64,000 bases of DNA from contig NZ_BONW01000033.1 of NCBI RefSeq assembly GCF_016862915.1, positions 1 to 64,000 on the forward strand, given 5' to 3'. The stretch is from Plantactinospora endophytica. GTDB lineage: Bacteria > Actinomycetota > Actinomycetes > Mycobacteriales > Micromonosporaceae. Numbering within the stretch: the first letter of the stretch is position 1; every line of letters starts with the position of its first letter. Below are positions 48,882 to 61,211 of the stretch, piece after piece. The position numbers and the translations under genes were made by a program. A model generated the notes under the pieces. The model did not search any database. It was not told the DNA's origin and saw only the letters and a list, made by a program, of their open reading frames with translations.

Positions 48882-49140
48882 AAAGTAGAAGGCATACTGA
48901 TCCAAAGTCGACTCTATCGCAAAACGCATCCCACCGCAACCCGCCAGTTCCAACCGCATCCCGGCACGTCCGCACAGGTCCTAGCCGTGTATAGGCCGCC
49001 ATCCAAGTCAATGGATGCGCTTGACCGCCTCGCAGTGGCCACGGAATCCGGCTACATCGCGCAACTTCCATACCACCTCCCTGGCGTCCGAGCACCCACG
49101 GAGCATCTGGAGCCGCCTGACTAGCGGTAGTTTGTCAGCT

Positions 49141-50578
49141 TCATGGTGGCAAATATAGATTCAGGGCGTGGCCATGCGCTACGGCGTTGAGCAGTTGCTG
49201 GAGTTCGTCGGGTGGTGGCTTGTTGGTCCAGGCTGTCCAGCAGCGGTGCAGCAGGAGCCACGGGGTGAGCCAGGGCGGACCGCGCGTAGCGCTTTGGACC
49301 AGCTGGGCTGGTCAGTCGGCGGCCCGGCTTCGGCGCCCCCTCTCTCCGGAGTTGTCGCGGGGCGGCTCCGGAGCGGGGGCAAGGGTGTCGTTTGTGGATG
49401 GTCGGTCGAACCAGGTGTCCCAGCAAACGAAATGCGCAGTTCACCAGTGTTTGGTGACGGCGGAGCGCGGTGGCGGAGCGGACTTGGAGGTCGGCCCAAC
49501 CGAGTTCGTCCTTGACCTGTTTATAGCTTTGCTCGATCCAGTGCCGGATCCCGTAGATGCGCACGACTTCGGTCAGGTTCGCCGGCTCGTGGGCCGGATC
49601 AGGAGTGTCGTGCGGGCCACCGGGTCGGGGCATGTTGGTGGCCAGGTACCAGGTGGCCTTGTCCGGCAAGGTTTCCGGGTCGGTGGTGGCGACCACGAGG
49701 CGGGTGCGCCCATCGGATCCCCACCAGCCCAATTGGGCGTCGGTGGCCCACCAGGTGCCGGTGCGCCCGTCGCGGAACCGGCGCTCGACGGGTGCCAGCC
49801 GCCGGGATCGCCGGGACCATTCCATGGCACGGCCCGGGCGGCGTCCTTCGGGGTGTAGGCCTCGGCACCGTACTGCCAGGTGCCGCGGGCGGGCTTGAGG
49901 GCCATGACAGAGCCCCAGCCGCTGGTACGCAGTTCGGCGCGTTAGGTCGTCGTGATCGCAGTAGAAGCAGTCCGCCACCACCGCCCGGCACGCCACACCG
50001 GCGGCGCGGGCCTTGGCGACCAGGTCGGCGGCGATCTGCAGCTTGGTCCGGAAGTCGGGATCGGCCCGCTTCTTCGCGAAGCGCGACGCGGGGGTGTAGG
50101 GCTCGGCGTGCAGCGGATAGTAGAGGCGTTCGTCGGCCCACATGGTGCTCACCGTGACGGTGCCGTTGTCGGTCTTGCCGTAACGGCCCAGCCACTGCCT
50201 GCCAACATGTGCCGTCGCGGTGCCGTCCTTGCGGTCGCCGGAGTCGTCGGTCGCGATCACCCCGCGCGCGTGCGGCGCGGTCGCCGGATCGTTGACCAGC
50301 AACTCCAGCCGCCGCCAGTTGACCTCGTCGGCGTTCCATGTCGACTGCGACAGGAAGTACTGCAACCGTTGCACCGCAGCGTGCTGTGCCCCCGCGACCG
50401 GCTCGGACCCGGCCAGGCCGGTCAAGGTCTTGTTCCGATCACGGGGCGGCAAAAGCCCGGTCAGATACTCACGAAACCCTCGCCGCTGCGCCAGCCTGGA
50501 GAACAACTCGTCGAAAGAGGCCGCATAGTCCTCCAACGGACCCGCAGCCGGACGACACGTCGCACGAACCACCAACAC
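49141..50578 (-). pseudogene. Decayed IS701-family transposase
   Basis: A long frame is open here, but the protein is scrambled. N-terminal and central blocks are IS701-like (GVIATDDSGDRKDGTATAHVGRQWLG, VVADCFYCDHDDL, YGIRHWIEQSYKQVKDELGW). Between about 49790 and 49940 the family sequence (MALKPARGTWQYGAEAYTP) lies in another frame, and the true C-terminus (WLTPWLLLHRCWTAW ... HALNLYLPP) lies in a further frame ending at 49141. At least three frameshifts are therefore present, disturbing the DDE core. I could not identify terminal inverted repeats. Confidence 0.85.
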
Positions 50579-50858
50579 CCCACTCGCTCGACAGGTCGCC
50601 TGCCGAATGAAACGCCGTCCGCCACCACCGGCATGCACCACGACCCGGACGACACCACCTCCACGATGCACTCACCGCGCCGGAGCGGACGCACAGCCCA
50701 ACTGCCATGCCGTGAGGAAGGCTGCCCGTGGTGCTCAAGGGAGGGACACCTCGCACGTGGTGACACTGGCTCAGAGCCACGGGGTCCGGGCTGAACTTTC
50801 GGAGATGGTGTCTGACTCGACGACTCCGCTGCGGCTATCCCTTCTGCAACTCTCTTGA

Positions 50859-53045
50859 TCAGTTGCCGGGAATGATTCGATAGACGTCGAATACACCGTC
50901 AACGGCCGCCACAGCATCGACGATGCCGCTCAATTTACTTGGCTCGCCGAACTCGAAGCTGAGCTGGCCGACTACAACGTAGTCGAGCGTGGTGGTCATT
51001 GTGACGGATAGAATCTTGACCGGCTCTTCGGAAAGCACTCGAACTACGTCTGCCATAAGCGCGTCTCGACTGAAGGCCTCGACTTGTATAGCCGCGATGA
51101 ACATCGAGGCAGTGGTCGGTTTCCACCTAACGTTGACAACCCTCTCTGCCTGCGCTCTCAACCCCTCCGCCATCGCGCAGTCGTCACGGTGGATGCTCAC
51201 CCCACTGAAGCGGGTAACAAAGCCGAACACGGTATCTGGTGGCACCGGGGTGCAGCAGCGGGAAAGCTTGATCCACACGTCACTGGCACCCTCGACCACC
51301 ACACCTGGGTTGCAGGCGTCACGGGGGCGCTGTGAACGGTCATCGACCGCGACCTCGGCGGAGCCCTCGGCAGCGTCCCCTTCACTTTCGTAGCCCGCCT
51401 CCAGAATTTGCACCACGGACTGCGCGGAGACCTGATTGTTACCTATTGCGGCATAGATCGAGGCGATATCGACCAGCCGTAGGTCCCTGGCGGCAGCCTC
51501 AAGATTGTCCCTGGTTAGCATCCGCTGCAACGACATGCCCTGCTTGCGCATCGCCTTGACGATCGCGTCCTTGCCGGCCTCGATCGCCTCCTCGCGCCGC
51601 TCCTTGTTGAAGTACTGCCGGATTTTCGCCCGCGCTCGAGGACTCTTGGTAAAGCCCAGCCAGTCCTGAGTCGGCCCGGCCGTACTGGATGTTGAGGTGA
51701 TGATTTCGACCAAGTCGCCGTTGGAGAGCGTCGACTCCAACGGCACCAGCTTGCCGTTCACCCGCGCGCCGATGCACTTGTGCCCCACCTCGGTGTGCAC
51801 CGCATACGCGAAGTCCACCGGCGTCGAGGCGGTCGGCAGTGGTAGGACGTCCCCCTTGGGGGTGAGAACGTAGACCTCCTGGCTGGACAGGTCGAAGCGG
51901 AGCGCGTCGAGGAACTCGCTCGGGTCGGCCGCCTCACGCTGCCAGTCCAGCAACTGCCGCAGCCACGTCATCTCGTCGATGTGTGCCGGCGGGCCGACGA
52001 CCGTCTCGCCCTTCTTCTCCTTGTACTTCCAGTGCGCCGCGATGCCGAACTCCGCCGTACGGTGCATCGCGTACGTCCGGATCTGCATCTCGACCGGCTT
52101 GCCACTCGGCCCGATCACCGTGGTGTGCAACGACTGGTACATGTTGAACTTCGGCATCGCGATGTAGTCCTTGAACCGACCCGGCACGGGCTGCCAGTTC
52201 GCGTGGATCACACCGAGCGCCGCGTAGCAGGCGACCACGCTGTCGACCAGGATGCGCACGCCGACCAGGTCGTGGACACGATCGAAATCACTGCCCCGCC
52301 CCATGATCCTTCGGTGGATCGCGTAGAGGTGCCTGGGTCGGCCGGTGGTCTCCGCCTTGATCTTGGCGGACCGCAGATCGATCTGCACCTTCTGGGTCAC
52401 CTGCCTCAGCAGCGCCTCACACTGCGGCTGGTGCTTCTCCAACAGCCGTTGTATCTCCGCGTAACGTCTCGGAAGGAGGTTCGCGAAGGCTAAGTCCTCC
52501 AGCTCCCACTTGATGGCGTTCATACCGAGCCGGTGCGCCAGTGGCACCAGAACCTCCAGCGTCTCCTTGGCCTTCTGCTCCCGCTCGGTCACCGGCAGGA
52601 AGGTCAACGTACGGAGGTTGTGCAATCGATCCGCGAGCTTTATCACCAGAACCCTGGGGTCTCTGGTCAACGAGACGATCATTGCTCGCGTGTCCGCAGG
52701 GTCCGCGTCAGCGTCAACTCTCATTCTGTCCAACGTCGCCGTACCAGCCATCAAAGACATGACCTCCCGGTCGAACGCACCCGAGAGATCCTGAGTACTA
52801 TCATCACAGTCATGCAGAAGCGCGACGACAATGGTTGCCGTGTCCATGCCCAGGTTGGCGAGGATCGTGGCGACAGCTAGCGGATGGACTATGTAGGGGT
52901 CGCCCGACTTCCGATACTGCCCCGTATGGAAGCGCGCAGCGAAGTCGTATGCACGGGCTATCTGTCTCGTGTCGGCATTCGGATGGCTGGATTTGTGGGT
53001 TTCGATCAATGGCTCCAGTACTTCACTGATTCTCCTGGAGCGCAC
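50859..53045 (-). CDS. Rel-type (p)ppGpp synthetase with altered hydrolase motif
   Basis: This 728-residue protein has the long RelA/SpoT layout: HD hydrolase (about 25-150), synthetase (about 215-345), TGS (about 385-450) and C-terminal ACT. In the HD domain, H54, H78-D79 and N143 are kept, but the usual HDTVEDT reads H78-D-C-D-D-S-T, so the catalytic Glu-Asp pair is Asp82-Ser83. The synthetase motifs RFKDYIA, YQSLHTTVIGP and EMQIRT look intact. This suggests a net alarmone maker. GTG at 53045 lacks a clear ribosome site. It starts 36 bp after the trypsin-NACHT gene, so it is probably its operon partner. It is likely additional to the chromosomal housekeeping Rel. Confidence 0.88.
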   Translation of the reverse strand: MRSRRISEVLEPLIETHKSSHPNADTRQIARAYDFAARFHTGQYRKSGDPYIVHPLAVATILANLGMDTATIVVALLHDCDDSTQDLSGAFDREVMSLMAGTATLDRMRVDADADPADTRAMIVSLTRDPRVLVIKLADRLHNLRTLTFLPVTEREQKAKETLEVLVPLAHRLGMNAIKWELEDLAFANLLPRRYAEIQRLLEKHQPQCEALLRQVTQKVQIDLRSAKIKAETTGRPRHLYAIHRRIMGRGSDFDRVHDLVGVRILVDSVVACYAALGVIHANWQPVPGRFKDYIAMPKFNMYQSLHTTVIGPSGKPVEMQIRTYAMHRTAEFGIAAHWKYKEKKGETVVGPPAHIDEMTWLRQLLDWQREAADPSEFLDALRFDLSSQEVYVLTPKGDVLPLPTASTPVDFAYAVHTEVGHKCIGARVNGKLVPLESTLSNGDLVEIITSTSSTAGPTQDWLGFTKSPRARAKIRQYFNKERREEAIEAGKDAIVKAMRKQGMSLQRMLTRDNLEAAARDLRLVDIASIYAAIGNNQVSAQSVVQILEAGYESEGDAAEGSAEVAVDDRSQRPRDACNPGVVVEGASDVWIKLSRCCTPVPPDTVFGFVTRFSGVSIHRDDCAMAEGLRAQAERVVNVRWKPTTASMFIAAIQVEAFSRDALMADVVRVLSEEPVKILSVTMTTTLDYVVVGQLSFEFGEPSKLSGIVDAVAAVDGVFDVYRIIPGN

Positions 53046-53081
53046 GCTGGCTGATTCAGGCCGGCGTCGAGCGAACAGCCC

Positions 53082-55904
53082 TCAGACAAGCGAGCGAGCG
53101 AGTGGTGCGTTCTTACTGGCATCGACCGGGACCGCCTGACCCGGGGTCGTGTCGGCCCCCGTTCGATTGAGCCGCGCAATCGAGTCTAGGGCGAGTTCCC
53201 GATCGAACGACAGTAGAGTTTTGTCGTTCGCTATCCGGGAAAGAAGGCTTCTTGCCCTCGGGTGTCTCGACTCAAGGAGCGCTTCTGCCGCCCACCGCCG
53301 GTCCACGCCATCGAGCCCCACGTCTTCAGCGAGCCTTAGGAGAAGCATATCGGTACCATGCTCGTTCAGCTTGGCGATGGTCTGTAGGGCCTGTCTATTA
53401 TATGGCGGCGTCGAGAGTTCAAGGCGCGCGTCCTTCGAAACATGGTCCGCTTTCACGAGCGCGAGGGCGCCGATAGCCCATCGTCGGTCGGCGTAGGAAA
53501 GGCGCCTATCCTGCGCGAGGCCGATCAGTGCAACTGATCCGGCGGACTCGTCGAGCTGGACCAGCAGCTCAGCGGAACGACGCCGGTCAGCCATTGGACT
53601 CCGCCGACGCCCTACAGAGTTCGCAAGCTTGGATACCGTGGTCTCCATAACCGACGGAGCAAGCTCCACACCGTCGGCTAGGAGGGTAACGACGAGGTCG
53701 CCCCCATGGAGAGTGTTCCTTGACACCAAATCACATAACGCAGGAGTCAAGTCCGACCTGCGTCGCCAAGCAGCTATAAGGAATCTGGTAAATGATTGTC
53801 TTCTGTCAAACCACTCGTCGTCGACTTCACCCCGCAGAAATAGCCTCTCGAAGAGAGCATCGCTCAAACTTGACTGAGACGTTATATGCTGCGCCGCCAG
53901 GTATTCTTGAATCGTCTGATGAAGGAACACAAAATCATCGGCTCGGGCAACCAGCACGCCGCTACGCCTGAGGATCTCACGTACGAGTGATTGCCAAACC
54001 TGCTCCGGGATTTGCTGGGGCCGGAGGTCAGCGGTCCAAGCCGTCACTAAGCACACCGCCGCCTCGGTCGACCCCATCTGCCGCGCCGAAGCCAATCCTG
54101 CAATAATCCCGGGCGCCCGCGCTAGAAGCGCCTCTCCGGCACGCTCCGCCACATCTCCGTATCGTCGCGTAATCGCCGCTATCTGCTGACGTATCCCGCC
54201 TTCCGAATCGTTGTACTGACGATCGCTGAACATCCGCATGAAAGTCGCATAGATGTTCGCTCGGCCGGCGGGAAAGTGGCGACGGGGATCTGAAGCGAAT
54301 ATCTGGCACAACATGGTACAGACGAGGGGAGTTCGGGCGAGTTCCCTGAGACTACTTCGGTCCAATAGATCAATGAAGCTTTGAGCCTCGTTCGCCGGGC
54401 CACGGAGTCGGAGTTGAGTGAACCAGCCCTTGGCGAACGCGAGCATCTGATCGCCATCAAATGGAAGAAGTCCGTATATTGCGAGCGCCGGTACGTTCGC
54501 TAGGAGATGGTCGCCGGGCCTAGAGGCCAAGATAAAGCGGTAGTGCTCTCCACCCTCACCTTGACGCAATCCGTGAAGCCGTTCCAGAACCTTCGCCCGA
54601 AGCTCTGGACTCATCACCTCATCTAGACCATCTATCAGGACAAGCCAGAGCGCTCCGGGCATCGGAGCGTCAGCGAATAATTCAGCGGGCAACCTGCGGC
54701 GTACACCGACATCACTGAGCGCAGAATTTACGCTAGCGGCTATTGATTCGGACACCGGACGGGATGGGACTAGGTCTGCGGCGAGCACTTGGACGGGTAC
54801 CGCCGAGGCTGCTCCTCGACTGACGCGGTCGAGGAGGTTAATGGATGCGATTCGAAGAAGGCTGGATTTGCCAGCTCCGGCTGCACCGATCAAAGCGGCG
54901 TCGCTCGGGCCATCGAATACTACGTCGGCCGGAACGTGCCGCCGATCCGGGGCATCGTCGTCCTCGCTAGCCTCGTCCACCGTCGCAAACTGCTGTACAT
55001 ACACAGTCGAAAGGGGAGGTGGCCGGTTGCCTGGGAGCACTCCTGGATAGGGGTGCATCTGGTTGGACTTTCGCGAAGCAGCTAGATAGGCGCGTAGTTG
55101 CGGGCTTGGAAAGGCCCATCCCCCAGCCTTGATCTCGTCATCGTCTAGCTGATCAAGCCAATGCCTGTGTCCCTCCAATCTTTCTTGCCAGGCCCGCACC
55201 GCCTCACATCTATTAGTCATCTCGTGGGCTCGCAGCAGGTGTGCGCTACCTTTTCCATCTGATGTGCAGAGCATGCCGCACACCGCACCGGTCCGTATAT
55301 TTACGACCGGGCTCCCGCTGAATCCCCCACCTACCGGGGGACCCCACACCCTAGGTAATAGCGAGGATCCAGGCCTGCTACGTTTGGAGTAGCCTTGGTA
55401 CTTGAAGGTTACGGATTGACCATCGCGAAAGTTGTTGGCGGGGTGGCCGTATGACCAGACTGGGTCTTGCACCGCAAGCACGTCGGATAGCAGTACAGCA
55501 TCGGTCGGTCCCGCCGAACACCCCTCTTCCGTCCTTACGAAGGCGAGGTCCAAGCCTGTCGGATCTCGGTAGTACTCTTCCCGGTCGGTGCGCAATGAAA
55601 TGACTCGTCCGGTCGGTCCTATCTGCGCTTGAATCGTTGGAGGCAGCGTATCGGCGGTATCAGCGAGGACGTGAGCGCAGGTCGCCACGATCCCAGGTGC
55701 GACAAAGAACCCCGTCCCCAACCGAGCTTTTTGCGATGCTGTAGCCGGGACGCACAGCGCAACGGTATAGGACGTGACCAAGCGTTCCCACACCTGTTGG
55801 GTTGGCAGTGTCATTGGAGGAGATTCGCCACCTCCCTCCTGTCCGAACTGAGACGCTCCTGCCTGTGCCGCAATCGAGCCAACTGCAGGACCGCGCTGAG
55901 TCAC
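53082..55904 (-). CDS. Trypsin-like protease fused to NACHT STAND NTPase
   Basis: This protein of up to 940 residues starts with a trypsin-like domain: H78 in VATCAHVLAD, D119 in GLDLAFV and S196 in GGFSGSPVV form the triad. The NACHT ATPase follows, with Walker A GAAGAGKSS (K346), Walker B LVLIDGLDE near residue 425, and LASRPGD as sensor. The C-terminal third is helical and repeat-like (LLRLAEDVGLDGVDRRWAAEALLE). Predicted role: a sensor NTPase releasing protease activity on detecting an invader. GTG at 55904 or ATG at 55814 could be the start; numbering uses 55904. Base composition is clearly poorer in G+C than in chromosomal neighbours. Confidence 0.88.
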   Translation of the reverse strand: MTQRGPAVGSIAAQAGASQFGQEGGGESPPMTLPTQQVWERLVTSYTVALCVPATASQKARLGTGFFVAPGIVATCAHVLADTADTLPPTIQAQIGPTGRVISLRTDREEYYRDPTGLDLAFVRTEEGCSAGPTDAVLLSDVLAVQDPVWSYGHPANNFRDGQSVTFKYQGYSKRSRPGSSLLPRVWGPPVGGGFSGSPVVNIRTGAVCGMLCTSDGKGSAHLLRAHEMTNRCEAVRAWQERLEGHRHWLDQLDDDEIKAGGWAFPSPQLRAYLAASRKSNQMHPYPGVLPGNRPPPLSTVYVQQFATVDEASEDDDAPDRRHVPADVVFDGPSDAALIGAAGAGKSSLLRIASINLLDRVSRGAASAVPVQVLAADLVPSRPVSESIAASVNSALSDVGVRRRLPAELFADAPMPGALWLVLIDGLDEVMSPELRAKVLERLHGLRQGEGGEHYRFILASRPGDHLLANVPALAIYGLLPFDGDQMLAFAKGWFTQLRLRGPANEAQSFIDLLDRSSLRELARTPLVCTMLCQIFASDPRRHFPAGRANIYATFMRMFSDRQYNDSEGGIRQQIAAITRRYGDVAERAGEALLARAPGIIAGLASARQMGSTEAAVCLVTAWTADLRPQQIPEQVWQSLVREILRRSGVLVARADDFVFLHQTIQEYLAAQHITSQSSLSDALFERLFLRGEVDDEWFDRRQSFTRFLIAAWRRRSDLTPALCDLVSRNTLHGGDLVVTLLADGVELAPSVMETTVSKLANSVGRRRSPMADRRRSAELLVQLDESAGSVALIGLAQDRRLSYADRRWAIGALALVKADHVSKDARLELSTPPYNRQALQTIAKLNEHGTDMLLLRLAEDVGLDGVDRRWAAEALLESRHPRARSLLSRIANDKTLLSFDRELALDSIARLNRTGADTTPGQAVPVDASKNAPLARSLV

Positions 55905-55961
55905 AGCATATCGCGGACGTTTAGCCCCACCCTCGCCGGTCCGCCATACAGTTTCGCCACT

Positions 55962-56315
55962 CTACGTTCCCGACTTCTCCCACTCAATCGTCACCTTGAG
56001 CCCGGATTTCGCCGAGACTTTCCCGAGGATCGCGACGAACGTTCCGGACTCCATCGCAAACTCACAGGCAACCTCGACGCTGAAGCGAGTCGCATCCGAA
56101 TTTTGCAGGCGAGCGGTCACCTTATCGGCGAATGCTACGACTCCTCGGAGCGCATCATCCAGCTCCGGCTGCTTGGCAGCGATCTCTACCTCATCGCCGG
56201 GCTGAGTGCGGTCGGTAGACGCTCTAGCGGACAGGAAGACGGTGTGTCCATCTATCTCCAAGGGAACGAGGACTTCCGACGCGGACGAGGGTTGGTCGAT
56301 ATCCTCGAGCACCAT
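55962..56315 (-). CDS. Trypco1 (trypsin-co-occurring domain 1) protein
   Basis: This 117-residue protein fits the small family found beside trypsin-NACHT genes in actinomycetes (Trypco1; NCBI name CU044_2847 family, from memory). It has an EVLVPLEIDGHTVFLSA strand pair, ALRGVVAFADKVTARLQ helix, and the hallmark C-terminal FSVEVACEFAMESG ... LKVTIEW. Such partners are thought to dock to or restrain the protease-NTPase. It lies 57 bp upstream of the trypsin-NACHT start on the same strand. ATG at 56315 or the GTG codon next to it could be used. Confidence 0.8.
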   Translation of the reverse strand: MVLEDIDQPSSASEVLVPLEIDGHTVFLSARASTDRTQPGDEVEIAAKQPELDDALRGVVAFADKVTARLQNSDATRFSVEVACEFAMESGTFVAILGKVSAKSGLKVTIEWEKSGT

Positions 56316-56504
56316 GACCTCCGGGCAGAGCCGACCGGTAACAGGTTCGACGCGTAGAGTAGTCGATGGTGTCAAGGACACGCGACCCGGCAACCACCAC
56401 CTCGTCAGGTACCGGCCAAGAACTGGGCCGCAGTGCGGCACGTTGGTATGTCCGCCCCGCCACGAGCGGGCATGTACTACCCGACGGTTAGTGCCCCCGG
56501 TGGC

Positions 56505-56972
56505 CTACTGACCAGGTGTGACGCTGACCCTCCTGGCGCTGGTTGCGGGAATCAGTGTGCGCAGGGTGTACGGGTCGGACTCGGCGAGGTAGCGGAAGCT
56601 CTGCGGGGGTTGGAACCGACCTTCTTCGCGGAGTCGGCGGAGGGATAGTGGCTCGTCGAGGGTGCAGACGCGGTGCAGCCGGAGTAGGTGAGCTCGGTCG
56701 TTGCCAGCAAGGTAGGCGTCGAACTCGGGGCGGCTGAGGCCGAGGCGGTCCTGGTACAGCCGCCATGCCTCCGGCGGGTCGAGCGTCTGAACGTCGCGTA
56801 AGCGGGCGGTGCCCACGATGGCCATGGCGGGGCTGCTGGCGTAGAGGATAATCGGGGTTTCTGGGTGAGCGTTGACGGGCCTTCGTCGCAGCTCCACGGT
56901 TTTCGTGCCGGACAGGATGGCGTCGGCGAAGCGGGGGCGGAGGGACAGCAGCAGGGTCCTGGATGTGCTCAC
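56505..56972 (-). CDS. ASCH/PUA-like domain protein
   Basis: This 155-residue protein resembles ASCH proteins: LLLSLRPRFADAILSGTKTVELRRR, IILYASSPAMAIVGTARLRDV, DAYLAGNDRAHLLRLHRV. The ASCH fold belongs to the PUA group, which binds RNA or modified nucleic acid. Its GTG start overlaps the stop of the GNAT-PIN gene by 4 bp, so the two products are made together. It is 189 bp upstream of the Trypco1 gene on the same strand. Confidence 0.75.
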   Translation of the reverse strand: MSTSRTLLLSLRPRFADAILSGTKTVELRRRPVNAHPETPIILYASSPAMAIVGTARLRDVQTLDPPEAWRLYQDRLGLSRPEFDAYLAGNDRAHLLRLHRVCTLDEPLSLRRLREEGRFQPPQSFRYLAESDPYTLRTLIPATSARRVSVTPGQ

Positions 56973-59044
56973 TGTCGGCGGCCTTCCTGGTAGAGCGCGG
57001 CAAACAGCCCGGGCGGTATCCGTAGCGGTCCTGGAGGTGGCACTCCTCGCTGCTGATGGGCGGCAGCCAGTACTTGCAGCCGTTGCGAGGATATGTGGGT
57101 CAGCAGCTCAGTGTTGGTGAAGCGCAAAGCTTGCACCTGCCCGTTGTGAGCAACGTTGTGGAGCTGATGCCCGTCCCAGACGCCAAGGTGCTGGAACCGC
57201 GCGTGGAAATCCTCCGGTGCCCCGATCTCCGCTAGGTCCAGTTGTGAGCAGGCGATGACAGCGGCAGGGTATGCGGTGGCAGGTCCACTGCGGCTCATGT
57301 ACCACAAAAGCCGAGCGGGGTGACGTGGCCGTGTACCTCGTGGGCTGCGGTAGTAGACGTGCTCGCGGGCGAGACCAAGGTTGTCGTGGCGGGGGAGCAG
57401 GCCGCCAGGGACGCCGAGCAGGTCGGCCGAGTACGCCTGCCGGATCGGGATGAGGTAGGTGAGCAGGGCACTGTCGGTGATCTTGGCTGGCCACCAAATC
57501 CGCTCGAGCTCGGCGGCAGCGACAGCGGGCATGTCTGATCCTAACGGCGCCGGTACGGGCACGCCGGCTTGCCGCGCTGCGGCAACGGCCTGCTGCTCGA
57601 CCTGTCCGGCCGGTCCGCAGACATCGATCACGAACGCGTAGAGCTGTTCGTCGTGCTGATAGAAGCCGTCCTGGAACGCCGCGAGCCGCAGTGCCGCGGA
57701 CACGTACCGGTCCGTGATCTTGATGATCGGGCTGCCGGCCGCGCGTGCCTTTTGCCGGAGTTGAAACAACAGTTGGCGGGCAAGGGTGTCGGCTAGGCCG
57801 ATGGTGGCTACCCGCGCCAACGGCACGGTCAGAGCGCCGTTCTCGGGCCGGGCCGCGATCACGGCCACCAGCCGTCCGTCCGGATCATAGATACCGGCGC
57901 GGTCGCAGCCTGCCAGGGCCATTTCGCGGTTGGTGTTGCGTAGATCCCGTCGTCGCTCGCCCGCCGCCGAGTTGACCAGTCCAGCTAGATCGTCTTCGGC
58001 GGCGATACCGAGCAGTTGCCTCCGGTAGCGGGTGCCAAGCAGGGCGGCCGGCTGGTACGCCTCCGCGCGGGCCAACTCGTCGATATGGATGAGGACCTCC
58101 AGCGGACGCAGGATTCGGAGTCCGTGTTGGCGCTGCGCGGGAGGGCCAAGGATGCTGGTGAGGTGCTCGTCTCGGGTGACGAACAGTTTGAGGCCGAGCG
58201 CGATCGCCTCGCAGACGTGCTCGAGGTCGTACCGGTCCTGATCCGTGCAGGGATACTTGGGATCAACGAGGTGCACCGCAGCCAGCAGGTCAGCTCGCAC
58301 CTGTTTCAGCTGTCCGTGGTCCACCCGCGGTGGCGGAGTGAACGACTGGGCGGCAGTGATGCACCGGGCACGTAGTGGCCCCTCCATACTGTTGACTTCC
58401 GAATCGAGTGCGCCCGTCCGCACCAGCTCCAGACGGTCGGCGAACTGGTCCCCTACCAGCGCTCTGGATTCGACGGCGTCTGATCGCTCCTCGTCGGCGA
58501 GGTCTCGTAGGACGTTGAGGTCGACCGCGGCGCGCGCCAGCACGCTGTCGTCGTCGCGGGTAAACAGGTTCGGCTGCCCGTGATCACGCCACCAGCTCGT
58601 CAACAGGTGACGAGCCCTGCTGCGCCCTGGTCGCTGTGACAACGGGGTGAAACGGAGTTTGATCCACATGTCGCCGAGGTTGTAGCTGTCGCGACACTTG
58701 GCTAATATCCCGGGGTAGTCGGAGTGATGATCACTGACCCAGTCGACCAGCAGGCGCGCAATGCCGTAGCCATGCCAGTGTGGATCGACGCAGAGATGCG
58801 TCAACCTCACGCGCCGACTGGTTAGCCCATATAGTGCATATCCGATGATCTGCTCGCCTGCGTACGCCAGCAGCAGGGTTCCCTTCTCCGCCGCGTCTCG
58901 GTAGCCGGCGAATGGCATGTGACCCAGGGTCGCGCGAGCTTTGTTACCCAACTCAACCGCCGCCATGATTCCCAAAACGTCATCACCTGCCGCCGACGCC
59001 AAGCGAATCGGTGTGGACGACGACGCTTCTTGATCGAGAGACAT
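56969..59044 (-). CDS. GNAT-PIN multidomain protein
   Basis: This 691-residue protein has an N-terminal GNAT acetyltransferase (about 12-137; HWHGYGIARLLV is the acetyl-CoA loop). A PIN nuclease-like domain follows (about 165-310), with aspartates at D175 in AVDLNVLRDLA, D273 and D292 in VTRDEHL. Residues about 350-475 resemble a second GNAT-like or helical region, and about 500-640 an ASCH/EVE-like part (VYYRSPRGTRPRHPARLLWYMS). PIN domains cut RNA, often as toxins; acetylation and PUA-type recognition could regulate or target it. It overlaps the ASCH gene by 4 bp. This combination suggests a toxin-like conflict module. Confidence 0.75.
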   Translation of the reverse strand: MSLDQEASSSTPIRLASAAGDDVLGIMAAVELGNKARATLGHMPFAGYRDAAEKGTLLLAYAGEQIIGYALYGLTSRRVRLTHLCVDPHWHGYGIARLLVDWVSDHHSDYPGILAKCRDSYNLGDMWIKLRFTPLSQRPGRSRARHLLTSWWRDHGQPNLFTRDDDSVLARAAVDLNVLRDLADEERSDAVESRALVGDQFADRLELVRTGALDSEVNSMEGPLRARCITAAQSFTPPPRVDHGQLKQVRADLLAAVHLVDPKYPCTDQDRYDLEHVCEAIALGLKLFVTRDEHLTSILGPPAQRQHGLRILRPLEVLIHIDELARAEAYQPAALLGTRYRRQLLGIAAEDDLAGLVNSAAGERRRDLRNTNREMALAGCDRAGIYDPDGRLVAVIAARPENGALTVPLARVATIGLADTLARQLLFQLRQKARAAGSPIIKITDRYVSAALRLAAFQDGFYQHDEQLYAFVIDVCGPAGQVEQQAVAAARQAGVPVPAPLGSDMPAVAAAELERIWWPAKITDSALLTYLIPIRQAYSADLLGVPGGLLPRHDNLGLAREHVYYRSPRGTRPRHPARLLWYMSRSGPATAYPAAVIACSQLDLAEIGAPEDFHARFQHLGVWDGHQLHNVAHNGQVQALRFTNTELLTHISSQRLQVLAAAHQQRGVPPPGPLRIPPGLFAALYQEGRRQ

Positions 59045-59621
59045 GGCGGAAGTCTGCCGGACCGCGAGAGGCTGGTGAACCCCTCAACCGTTCATAATGG
59101 CGTGGTCGAACCTCGCAATGCCGTCCCGCATCTGCGGAGGACGCCGGGTATGCGACGGACGGTCGGGCAGTCGGATTATCGACAGAACCAGGGCGTGGCG
59201 AAGAGCCTCCGCGCCGGTGCGAATTACCCCATCACCGATGCTGCTTCAGTGGGCGGTCGCCTGCTGGCTGCGGCATCGGTGGCGGATCAAGACCCGGATG
59301 CGGCCGACAGCCGGACGCACCATGTTTCTAGCATCTCCCGAGTCCACACATCGGCCACCTCCCAGGGGAACTGTCGTCGCAGCAGGCCTCGGTTGATGCA
59401 CCACCAGTGTTGGCTTACCGACACTTTCTGACAACTCGAGGACCGGCCGATCCCAAGATCGATAGACATCGGCCAGACCAGGGATCATGATCCGACATAT
59501 GTGGATCTTGACCCTTCCCTGGCACGGCCGAGGTGAGGTGACGTCAGCAGCATCACGGCCGGGCGCGACGCCGCCCCGAGGGCTAGGTCCTTGTCACGTG
59601 AGGCAGAATCTACGAGTGCAG
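59045..59621. other. Divergent intergenic region in the island
   Basis: About 577 bp separate the GNAT-PIN start from the NERD-helicase start. Short frames occur on both strands (for example 59287-59469 minus), but none has a recognisable domain or ribosome site. The interval probably holds promoters for both operons and perhaps decayed sequence. Confidence 0.4.
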
Positions 59622-61211
59622 ATGGTTCCAGAGCCAATCTCCCCCTCCACGCAGAGTGCCGCCGAGACCTCCCTATATCGGCGGTTGAAGCTGCTCGATA
59701 CAGGTTGGAGCGTGGCGTTGCACAGCCTCAACCTGCCAGAACATTCCTGGAAGCGGGTCAGCGAGATCGACTTCGTCGTCGTCGGTTCGCGTGGCGTCTA
59801 TGTACTCGAGGTGAAAGGCGGATTCGTCGGCTGCACCAACGGCATTTGGACGTACCGCGACCGGTCCGGTGCTGAAAGGCGTCGCAGGGAGAGCCCCTTC
59901 GCGCAGGTCAACGACGCGATGTTCGTCCTGCAGCGGCGGCTCGATGAGATTCTGGGCCACGACGTGATGCGACGGGTACCGATCGGCTATGGGGTTGTGG
60001 CGCCCGACTGTGACCTGTCGTCACAGGTCTCTGTCGAGTGGGCCGAGGAGACCCTGATAGATCGTCGGCAGTTGGATCGTCCGGACGGTCTGCAGCGCAG
60101 TCTCGGGCGGTTGGCGGCCTACTGGCGTGCCAAACCCGGTCGTCGTGACGCCACCCTGGACGCTCCAATGATCGACAAGATCGTGCAGGCCCTGCGTCCC
60201 ACGTTCGACACGGTGCCGACCCTGCGCCAGATCGTGACGGACGCGGAGGCCGATCTGGTGGCGTTGACCACCAACCAGTACCGGGCGCTGGATACCTACG
60301 GTCGCAACCCCCGGATCCTCGTGGAGGGCGGTGCTGGCACAGGCAAGACGATGCTTGCTGCGGAACTGTGCCGGCGGGCGGCAGCGGACGGGCGGCGGGT
60401 GCTCTTCACCTGTCGCAGTCAAGTGGTCGCCGGGTTCGTCCGTCATCAGCCGGGCCTGGAGTCCGTGGAGGTGGTGGCACTCGCCAACCTCCCGGATGTC
60501 GTCGCCGGCCCGTTCGATGCGATTGTCGTCGACGAAGCGCAGGACATCATCAACTTCCCCGACCTGTCGCGACTGGAGGCGCTGCTCAGCGGGGGCCTGG
60601 GCGACGGTTTCTGGTACATGTTCCTCGACAGCAACAACCAGCGGGGGCTGGTCGGCTCCTGCGACGACGAGGCTCTCGCCTACCTGCGCTCCATGCGACC
60701 GACTGAGGTGGTGCTGCGCGACAACTGCCGCAACACACGGCAGATCGTGTCCTCGACGCACCGCGTCACCGGAGCTGACACCGGTGTGTCCTCCGCCGGC
60801 GACGGCCCCGAGGTGACCACCGTCGTGGAGCCGGATCCCACTCGTCAGGCCGCCGCCGCCGCCCTCGAACTCGACCGTCTCGAGGAGAACGGAATCCCGG
60901 GCACGGAGATCACACTGTTGTCGCCGCTCCCGTTGCAGGAGTCGGTGTTCTCGGGTCTGCCGGCACGGTGGCGTCGTCGGGTCGATGTCCTTGACCTGCG
61001 CGGCCTGCGACGTCCGACCCGTGGACGGATCGCGTTCGCCCGGGTTGAGGACTTCAAGGGGTTGGAGAGCCGGTTCGTCCTTCTGGGTGATGTTGATATG
61101 GCTCATATGGCCGTAACGGAGCGCGTCCGCAATCTCTACGTTGGGATGACCAGGGCCAGGGTCGGGCTGTGGATCGTGACCGGCGAGCGGTCCGTGGGAT
61201 CGGAGGTCTGA
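59622..61211 (+). CDS. NERD nuclease-domain superfamily 1 helicase-like protein
   Basis: This 529-residue protein starts with a NERD domain (about 10-130), whose endonuclease-like core shows D50 and E63-V-K65 (SEIDFVVV, VLEVKGG). A UvrD-like ATPase follows: Walker A GGAGTGKT with K242, Walker B VVDEAQD with D304-E305, and the C-terminal MTRARVGLWIVTG motif. It should act on DNA as a nuclease-helicase. ATG at 59622 is chosen; GTG two codons earlier is possible. The DrmA-like gene follows after 3 bp on the same strand, so the two probably work together in DNA-targeting defence. Confidence 0.85.
   Translation: MVPEPISPSTQSAAETSLYRRLKLLDTGWSVALHSLNLPEHSWKRVSEIDFVVVGSRGVYVLEVKGGFVGCTNGIWTYRDRSGAERRRRESPFAQVNDAMFVLQRRLDEILGHDVMRRVPIGYGVVAPDCDLSSQVSVEWAEETLIDRRQLDRPDGLQRSLGRLAAYWRAKPGRRDATLDAPMIDKIVQALRPTFDTVPTLRQIVTDAEADLVALTTNQYRALDTYGRNPRILVEGGAGTGKTMLAAELCRRAAADGRRVLFTCRSQVVAGFVRHQPGLESVEVVALANLPDVVAGPFDAIVVDEAQDIINFPDLSRLEALLSGGLGDGFWYMFLDSNNQRGLVGSCDDEALAYLRSMRPTEVVLRDNCRNTRQIVSSTHRVTGADTGVSSAGDGPEVTTVVEPDPTRQAAAAALELDRLEENGIPGTEITLLSPLPLQESVFSGLPARWRRRVDVLDLRGLRRPTRGRIAFARVEDFKGLESRFVLLGDVDMAHMAVTERVRNLYVGMTRARVGLWIVTGERSVGSEV

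What the first reader, a model, noticed from the sequence alone, without database searches (positions are those of the whole stretch)
50859..56315. Rel-type alarmone enzyme in one operon with a Trypco1/trypsin-NACHT conflict module
Trypco1, trypsin-NACHT and Rel genes lie on one strand with gaps of 57 and 36 bp, inside a putative island. Trypsin-NACHT plus Trypco1 is a recognised predicted conflict pair, but I know of no description of a full-length Rel enzyme as a third partner. The Rel hydrolase motif is altered (Asp82-Ser83 in place of Glu-Asp) while synthetase motifs look intact. A possible logic is that sensing by the NTPase releases the protease, and growth arrest comes from unopposed (p)ppGpp synthesis, perhaps after proteolytic activation of Rel.
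Basis: partly seen in the sequence, partly recalled or inferred. Interest (0 to 1): 0.88.

Follow-up and report, generated by a model that had tools for sequence, protein, structure and literature searches.

The report
Protease-switch immune protein carrying host Rel
Some soil actinobacteria carry an immune-receptor-like protein with a protease at one end and a worn-out copy of the cell's own starvation enzyme Rel at the other, and that copy seems to be refreshed from the working host gene, which suggests a molecular decoy or sensor and can be tested.

Summary
Rel is not an independent third partner: its frame is continuous with trypsin-NACHT, broken by one in-frame TGA. In eight other genomes (two near-identical) it is one open frame, trypsin-NACHT-HEAT-Rel, 1465-1783 codons, with a Trypco1 gene beside it.

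Trypsin-NACHT parts of 11 Rel carriers form one clade. Their Rel parts do not (p-AU 4.8e-7): over synthetase plus C-terminal half, six of nine are exact sisters of their own genome's housekeeping rel. Tracts reach 99% DNA identity, with host-like GC3, in otherwise diverged genes. This points to gene conversion, or repeated replacement, from host rel.

Hydrolase residues are altered in 12 of 12 module rows, 0 of 17 housekeeping Rels. Synthetase Arg241 is lost in 7 of 10 distinct modules. Protease triad and Walker motifs persist in 11 of 11, the Rel zinc finger in 8 of 9.

Best reading: an NLR-like switch with a protease effector, where Rel sits in the sensor position as host-matched bait. Unopposed (p)ppGpp synthesis fits poorly. 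The trigger is unknown; no function was tested.

The parts
55962..56315 (-). Trypco1 gene (117 aa), small partner of trypsin-like conflict proteins
   Evidence: PF19493 4.7e-11; a homologue lies directly upstream of trypsin-NACHT in the other Rel carriers listed, except Trebonia, where it is downstream on the other strand
53082..55904 (-). trypsin-NACHT-HEAT protein (940 aa): N-terminal trypsin-like protease, central NACHT ATPase, C-terminal helical (HEAT-like, by eye) repeats
   Evidence: Pfam; protease triad and Walker A/B motifs aligned and kept in 11 of 11 Rel carriers; low-confidence model (pLDDT 63.9) whose best PDB matches are NOD2 and NLRP proteins, E 3.7e-8 but TM-score only about 0.3
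53082..53084 (-). in-frame TGA that splits the fused reading frame in this genome
   Evidence: frame continuous through 12 codons to the Rel start; the genome search also reports 1 TGA inside the match
50859..53045 (-). Rel moiety (728 aa): pseudo-hydrolase HD, synthetase, TGS, AH, RIS/zinc finger, ACT
   Evidence: Pfam; best match among solved chains is the full-length RelA chain 8fr8_I, 7e-264; HDCDDS for HDTIED
51786..52145 (-). approximate core of the gene-conversion tract (housekeeping codons about 301-420): 94-99% DNA identity to the own housekeeping rel and GC3 0.92-0.95, flanked by diverged, lower-GC3 sequence
   Evidence: sliding identity and GC3; window coordinates converted by hand from codon numbers, so approximate

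Best explanation
The locus is a bacterial NLR-like (STAND/NACHT) conflict system with Trypco1 as small partner. The N-terminal trypsin-like protease is the effector, the NACHT ATPase the switch, and the C-terminal Rel, following the HEAT-like repeats, is the sensing part. Rel is a catalytically decayed, host-matched copy of the cell's own stringent-response enzyme: most likely an integrated decoy for an invader protein (presumably of a phage) that binds or modifies Rel. When that protein acts on the bait, the NACHT domain changes state and releases the protease, killing or arresting the cell. Gene conversion from the housekeeping rel keeps the bait resembling the real target while its hydrolase stays off. 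In the window the chain is split by a TGA into a protease-NACHT protein and a separate Rel, which may still act together or may mark a decaying copy. Shown by sequence: the architecture, the single clade of trypsin-NACHT parts, the host-matching of Rel, the loss of hydrolase residues, dN/dS below 1. Inferred: Rel as sensor, the phage trigger, protease release, cell death.
For: Fusion in one open frame in MP36, G280, M. tulbaghiae (G208), its near-copy M. chalcea, G248, ATCC 39149, Trebonia and Amycolatopsis, and in Hamadaea up to a contig end. Trypsin-NACHT parts of 11 Rel carriers form one clade against 23 others, SH-aLRT 100; Rel parts are rejected as one clade, p-AU 4.8e-7 for SYN+CTD and 7.6e-46 for HD. 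In the SYN+CTD tree six of nine modules are exact sisters of their own hk rel and two more group with their two hosts' hk. MP36 and G280 modules are sisters in trypsin-NACHT and HD, but their SYN+CTD parts are rejected as sisters, p 0.00013. G280, a single-contig genome: 97-99% DNA identity to own hk over codons 241-660, 40-53% over codons 1-180. GC3 steps up at the tracts in four modules. Trebonia: own hk is the nearest in 17 of 17 windows. Hydrolase residues altered in 12 of 12 module rows, 0 of 17 hk; Arg241 lost in 7 of 10 distinct modules, 0 of 17 hk. Protease triad and Walker motifs kept in 11 of 11. dN/dS 0.05-0.47 in three pairs where computable. Precedents: inactive enzyme copies proposed as decoys in such systems (PMC7159879, passages); a bacterial NACHT protein sensing phage through host DnaJ (PMC12169576, passages).
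Against: No function was tested and no phage protein that attacks actinobacterial Rel was found here (one listing searched, not followed). The sensor position is an analogy with other STAND proteins. Gene conversion could be a passive result of similarity. In the HD tree only three of nine modules (Trebonia, G025, Amycolatopsis) pair with their own hk. By 60-codon windows own hk is strictly best in only 75 of 146. Longest exact run is not longest with own hk in 4 of 9 modules. The synthetase of M. tulbaghiae looks intact and that of the window nearly so. The window and NBS 11-29 copies are interrupted. dN/dS rests on three pairs, two of them with many dS values above 1.
Confidence: 0.5

Rival explanations
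1. Stalled-ribosome sensor. The Rel part, through its C-terminal half, binds ribosomes carrying uncharged tRNA as housekeeping Rel does, and the NACHT-protease fires when translation is attacked or starved. No invader protein needs to touch Rel.
For: TGS, AH, RIS and ACT are kept in most modules; the CC...HxxxC zinc-finger motif is intact in 8 of 9 and TGS is 77-100% identical to own hk in 8 of 9. That this half of Rel contacts ribosome and tRNA is recalled; E. coli RelA acting with uncharged tRNA at the A-site is stated in PMC8012599 (passages).
Against: Ribosomes should differ little between these hosts (inference), so binding them would not need repeated host-matching of the enzyme half; HD and SYN are retained with dN/dS below 1 although a ribosome binder could shed them. 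The Amycolatopsis module lacks RIS and has only 23% identity over AH.
Confidence: 0.2
2. Effector reading: Rel is an alarmone synthetase without hydrolase; NACHT activation, perhaps with self-cleavage by the trypsin domain, unleashes (p)ppGpp synthesis and growth arrest.
For: Hydrolase altered in 12 of 12 rows; Asp264 kept in all modules with data except Amycolatopsis, Glu323 in all with data; synthetase motifs complete in M. tulbaghiae and near-complete in the window. E. coli RelA is a precedent for pseudo-hydrolase plus active synthetase (PMC8012599, passages). In the window Rel is already a separate ORF. PADLOC lists a defence-candidate model, PDC-S33, that matches the synthetase region at 4.2e-11.
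Against: Arg241, which with Arg269 sandwiches the ATP adenine (PMC7983052, passages), is lost in 7 of 10 distinct modules; G025 also loses Arg269, Tyr308 and His312; in Amycolatopsis Lys297 is Ser and Arg269 aligns to a gap. It does not explain why the copy tracks the host rel, and the protease would be a second effector.
Confidence: 0.13
3. Passive history: a rel gene was once fused to a trypsin-NACHT gene, and similarity to the housekeeping gene alone drives conversion; the Rel part has no specific role or is decaying.
For: The window copy is split by TGA and the Micromonospora NBS 11-29 copy has broken frames; dN/dS is higher than in housekeeping rel.
Against: dN/dS in the Rel parts is 0.18-0.47 where computable (three pairs); the open frame is kept in 8 genomes of three orders by NCBI ranks (Micromonospora's order recalled); unselected conversion should sometimes restore the hydrolase (inference), yet 0 of 12 rows have it.
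Confidence: 0.12

Closest known systems
Trypco1/trypsin conflict proteins (Kaur et al. 2020, PMC7159879; passages read)
   Same: Trypsin-like protease with a neighbouring Trypco1 gene; the paper mentions a RelA nucleotidyltransferase as a less frequent vWA-fused domain, a STAND NTPase with an N-terminal trypsin domain in one system, and proposes inactive enzyme copies as decoys.
   Different: No MoxR or vWA domain found in the 13 neighbouring ORFs scanned; Rel is full length, decayed and host-matched.
Bacterial NLR-related (bNACHT) anti-phage proteins, e.g. bNACHT25 (PMC12169576; passages read)
   Same: N-terminal effector, central NACHT, C-terminal part; indirect sensing through a host protein is reported for bNACHT25.
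   Different: bNACHT25 has a nuclease effector and uses the host's own DnaJ; here the effector is a protease and a copy of the host protein is built into the receptor.
Plant NLRs with integrated decoy domains (search listing only; otherwise recalled)
   Same: Receptor carrying a copy of a pathogen target as bait.
   Different: No shared descent is claimed; the bait here is a housekeeping enzyme that seems to be refreshed by gene conversion.
Bifunctional Rel (RSH) enzymes
   Same: Full domain set HD-SYN-TGS-AH-RIS-ACT, 75% protein identity to the own housekeeping Rel.
   Different: Hydrolase residues lost, synthetase often degraded, fused to or split from trypsin-NACHT.
CARD-NLR systems such as LypABC (PMC13236601; passages read)
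   Same: Trypsin-like protease coupled to an NLR-like ATPase.
   Different: Separate proteins, CARD-like domains, TPR repeats; no Rel in the passages seen.

Membership tests
STAND/NACHT (NLR-like) switch protein | NACHT ATPase with Walker A and B | tested here: met
   Walker A GxxGxGKSS and Walker B VDGLDE-type motif kept in 11 of 11 carriers, G025 with DSLDE; Pfam NACHT 2.8e-4 but under its curated cut-off; Foldseek to NOD2/NLRP, TM about 0.3, model pLDDT 63.9
STAND/NACHT (NLR-like) switch protein | N-terminal effector with catalytic residues kept | tested here: met
   His, Asp and Ser of the trypsin triad kept in 11 of 11 carriers (role of the residues recalled)
STAND/NACHT (NLR-like) switch protein | C-terminal sensor that controls the switch | not testable with these tools
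   position fits; function needs experiment
Functional bifunctional Rel enzyme | HDxxED and related hydrolase residues | tested here: not met
   HDCDDS in window; altered in 12 of 12 module rows, 0 of 17 housekeeping
Functional bifunctional Rel enzyme | synthetase active-site residues | tested here: inconclusive
   window keeps Arg241, Asp264, Arg269, Glu323 but has K243R, S247A, K251R; 7 of 10 distinct modules lack Arg241
VMAP/MoxR-vWA ternary conflict system | MoxR ATPase and vWA protein in the operon | tested here: not met
   none among 13 neighbouring ORFs scanned with Pfam, some of which may not be genes; VMAP itself not searched by name
Anti-phage defence system | protects against phage | not testable with these tools
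   no experiment; PADLOC gives weak domain matches for trypsin-NACHT (best 2.6e-6) and PDC-S33 4.2e-11 for the Rel synthetase region
Integrated decoy receptor | integrated domain resembles a host protein and is enzymatically impaired | tested here: met
   resemblance and host-matching; impairment by residues only; no assay
Integrated decoy receptor | an invader effector acts on both target and decoy and triggers the receptor | not testable with these tools
   no candidate effector known here

The most novel reading that the evidence does not exclude
A bacterial NLR-like receptor with an integrated decoy: a disarmed copy of the housekeeping alarmone enzyme Rel, kept matched to the host's real Rel by recurrent gene conversion, guarding the stringent response and firing a protease when an invader acts on Rel.
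Probability: 0.4. Interest if true: 0.93.

Novelty: new variant of a known kind. Interest (0 to 1): 0.82.

Why it matters
Decoys made of inactive enzyme copies have been proposed for bacterial conflict systems (PMC7159879), without a worked case known to me. Here the sequence record shows one receptor lineage carrying a disabled Rel that follows the host gene in different genera. That is a concrete prediction that phages attack Rel in actinobacteria and that the cell watches for it. It can be tested by swapping the Rel part, by looking for phage proteins that bind Rel, and by asking whether protection fails when bait and host Rel no longer match. If instead the Rel part reads stalled ribosomes, it would be a direct link between translation stress and an NLR-like death switch.

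Tried and rejected
Three-gene operon with Rel as an independent partner: rejected as the usual state, because the frame is continuous and relatives are fused. Rel as the relocated housekeeping gene: rejected, an apt-linked rel is elsewhere. Chance association: rejected by recurrence. Assembly artefact as the source of the mosaic: unlikely, G280 and G248 are single-contig genomes. One clade of module Rels: rejected. Other host enzymes in the same C-terminal position: I printed the tails of 16 non-Rel relatives and judged them by eye only; most read as HEAT-like repeats, L112 is unassigned, and the open frame of L124 runs on into what looks like a KdpD-type sensor kinase (not followed). Phage carriage: no match in 50,697 phage records, one weak match without Rel in viral contigs. 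Plasmids: 7 records, all under 60% identity; I looked at one, which shows no Rel. Wider sampling: order, 6 of 397 genomes at 1e-110, Rel in own, G208 and the Amycolatopsis genome (G451), none in the roughly 5-kb stretches held for the other three; class, 2 of 394, no Rel in the one new stretch. Literature: no trypsin-NACHT-Rel protein in the listings (one search found no paper) or in the passages read; the library is open-licence only, so this is not proof of absence. One search (phage inhibitors of the stringent response) gave a listing only.
Full report
The observation. The three minus-strand genes lie at the coordinates given and their domains are as named. The Rel ORF of 728 aa has the full set of Rel domains, and its best match among solved chains is the full-length RelA chain 8fr8_I. 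The genome holds three RelA_SpoT proteins: this one, a housekeeping rel beside an apt-like gene (L002) and a second RSH paralogue (L003); its six held genus mates have two each. Trypsin-NACHT has no match at 1e-30 in those six. The window belongs to the family of Micromonospora: the stretch taken from G208, given as the same family, is 100% identical over 16 kb to L055, M. tulbaghiae.

Rel is a domain, not a neighbour. The 36 bases between the ORFs are 12 codons in one frame with both; a single TGA interrupts it. In 300 genomes of the family, 10 have a trypsin-NACHT relative at 1e-60. Of these, the window has Rel adjacent, four have it fused in one open frame (G288, G280, G208, G248), and one (G044) runs into Rel and then off the contig. 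In G025 the gene runs off its contig and a Rel piece open at a contig end lies on another, so membership is inferred. G037 and G148 have no Rel in the fetched stretch, and G105 ends at a contig edge and cannot be judged. A scan of the genome-contig collection (84,980 species by the tool's description) kept 79 loci of 125 relatives; 8 of the 79 carry Rel: Micromonospora MP36 (its contig length equals that of G288's), NBS 11-29 (frame broken), M. tulbaghiae, M. chalcea, ATCC 39149, Amycolatopsis coloradensis, Trebonia kvetii and a Hamadaea MAG. With the window, G280, G248 and G025 this makes 12 genomes, two of them near-copies of each other. Amycolatopsis is in Pseudonocardiales and Trebonia in Streptosporangiales by NCBI ranks; the genome search counts Amycolatopsis (G451) in the window's own order. 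Trypco1 lies directly upstream in the carriers listed, except Trebonia, where it is downstream on the other strand.

One receptor, many Rels. The trypsin-NACHT parts of 11 carriers form one clade with SH-aLRT 100 against 23 relatives taken as non-Rel; one of those 23, L076, is frame-broken and near a contig end, so it is not certain to lack Rel; the 23 are a choice from the 79 loci and the family search. The Rel parts do not form one clade: p-AU is 4.8e-7 for the synthetase and C-terminal half, and 7.6e-46 for HD. In the first tree the window, Trebonia, G025, MP36, M. tulbaghiae and G280 modules are each sister to the housekeeping rel of their own genome (support 86/83 to 100/100). The G248 and ATCC 39149 modules are sisters, then join their two hosts' genes (99/98). 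Amycolatopsis is a long branch there. In the HD tree only Trebonia, G025 and Amycolatopsis pair with their own host; the window, MP36 and G280 lie far out on long branches. MP36 and G280 are sisters in trypsin-NACHT and in HD, yet their Rel C-terminal parts are rejected as sisters, p 0.00013; the window with those two is rejected at 2e-77; a group of M. tulbaghiae, G248 and ATCC 39149 is rejected only weakly, p 0.033.

Mosaic genes. G280 is 97-99% identical in DNA to its own housekeeping rel over codons 241-660 and 40-53% over codons 1-180. The window copy reaches 99% in codons 301-360 and falls to 52% at 61-120. The own housekeeping gene is the nearest of 17 for the synthetase region in 8 of 9 modules, G025 being the exception; for the window the margin over the nearest genus mate is small, 90.9 against 90.3%. 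By 60-codon windows the own gene is strictly best in 75 of 146 windows summed over the nine modules: 17 of 17 in Trebonia, 13 of 17 in ATCC 39149, 12 of 17 in G280, 6 of 17 in the window. GC3 shows the same joints: trypsin-NACHT 0.56-0.61 and HD 0.57-0.71, but 0.82-0.95 for the rest of Rel and 0.97-0.98 for housekeeping rel, in the window, MP36, G280 and M. tulbaghiae. In the window GC3 peaks at 0.92-0.95 in codons 301-420 and drops to 0.64-0.70 at both ends. Trebonia shows a milder step, and G248, ATCC 39149, Amycolatopsis and G025 little or none. The longest exact run with own housekeeping rel beats all other 16 in 5 of 9 (G280 259 against 104, G248 154/97, M. tulbaghiae 128/116, window 116/90, ATCC 39149 113/88) and not in 4 (MP36 96/110, whose housekeeping gene is contig-cut, Trebonia 63/71, G025 21/32, Amycolatopsis 14/21). 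Housekeeping branches are short and module branches long, so the flow is most simply from host gene to module. Repeated whole replacement by a fresh host copy, rather than tract conversion, would also fit, above all in Trebonia.

What is lost and kept. Hydrolase residues are altered in 12 of 12 module rows (M. chalcea included) and 0 of 17 housekeeping rows, by differing changes: window HDCDDS, M. tulbaghiae SGTTDG, G248 GDTVED, ATCC 39149 SGTVED, Hamadaea QDVAED; Trebonia keeps HDTIED but has Ala at Asp144. The HDxxED motif and its loss in E. coli RelA are in PMC8012599 (passages); the other hydrolase numbers are recalled. Arg241 is replaced in 7 of 10 distinct modules with data and kept in the window, M. 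tulbaghiae and NBS 11-29; the Amycolatopsis alignment there is uncertain by a residue. Asp264 and Glu323, the catalytic acids (PMC7983052, passages), are kept except Asp264 in Amycolatopsis. The zinc-finger motif is intact in 8 of 9, absent in Amycolatopsis. The trypsin triad and the Walker motifs are kept in 11 of 11 carriers. Pairwise dN/dS is 0.05-0.47 in the module parts where it could be computed, against 0-0.15 in housekeeping rel; this is three pairs, one HD pair gave no value, and many dS in two pairs exceed 1. So the protein looks constrained, though less than the enzyme.

How it most likely works. STAND proteins usually put the effector first, the ATPase in the middle and the sensor last (recalled). 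Here that gives protease, NACHT, Rel. A disarmed Rel in the sensor position that keeps looking like the host's Rel is what a decoy would need: the same surface as the real target, without disturbing the alarmone pool. Kaur et al. proposed decoy roles for inactive enzyme copies in related conflict systems (passages), and a bacterial NACHT protein is reported to sense phage through a host protein (passages). The steps from trigger to protease release are inferred. Ribosome sensing is the main rival; alarmone synthesis is possible for copies with an intact synthetase.

Setting. A same-genus genome (G003) matches the window from 44.5 to about 48.7 kb; then come a DDE transposase gene and the module, for which the genus search lists no DNA match beyond rel itself, so it seems to sit in strain-specific DNA. 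A NERD-helicase gene similar to one of a reverse-transcriptase defence type lies nearby.

Limits. No function was tested. The trypsin-NACHT model is of low confidence. The sample of carriers is small. The window copy is split, and it is unknown whether the TGA is a sequencing error, a functional split or decay.

Noticed in passing
window 59487-61211 (+): NERD-domain helicase (574 aa) matching PADLOC RTasNERD-Hel at 3.5e-36, a helper of a reverse-transcriptase defence type; its partner was not looked for.
   Followed up: no
window 49121-50671 (-): DDE_5 transposase-type gene beside the module, just past the edge of synteny with a same-genus genome.
   Followed up: partly
window 56500-59238: A stretch upstream of the module, with a GNAT-domain protein, has an 88% identical copy elsewhere in the same genome (contig C50:68000-70739).
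   Followed up: no
L053 9821-11947: The Micromonospora NBS 11-29 module has its Rel part in several pieces with stops, a naturally broken copy.
   Followed up: partly
L031 and L046 (genome G044): Two Rel C-terminal pieces on separate contigs both begin at the same Rel residue (475), as if two similar copies broke the assembly; would fit conversion in that genome too.
   Followed up: partly
L124 6659-12466 (Streptomyces xiaopingdaonensis): The open frame of a NACHT relative runs on into what looks by eye like a KdpD-type sensor kinase; may be two genes in one frame.
   Followed up: no
L160 3582-7585 (Streptomyces canus plasmid NZ_CP108710.1): A plasmid-borne trypsin-like peptidase relative sits divergently beside a small CU044_2847 family gene, possibly a Trypco1 relative; not tested.
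   Followed up: no
L003 503-2377: A second RSH paralogue about 600 aa long without the ACT end; similar proteins appear in most other family genomes searched with Rel; its role is unknown to me.
   Followed up: no
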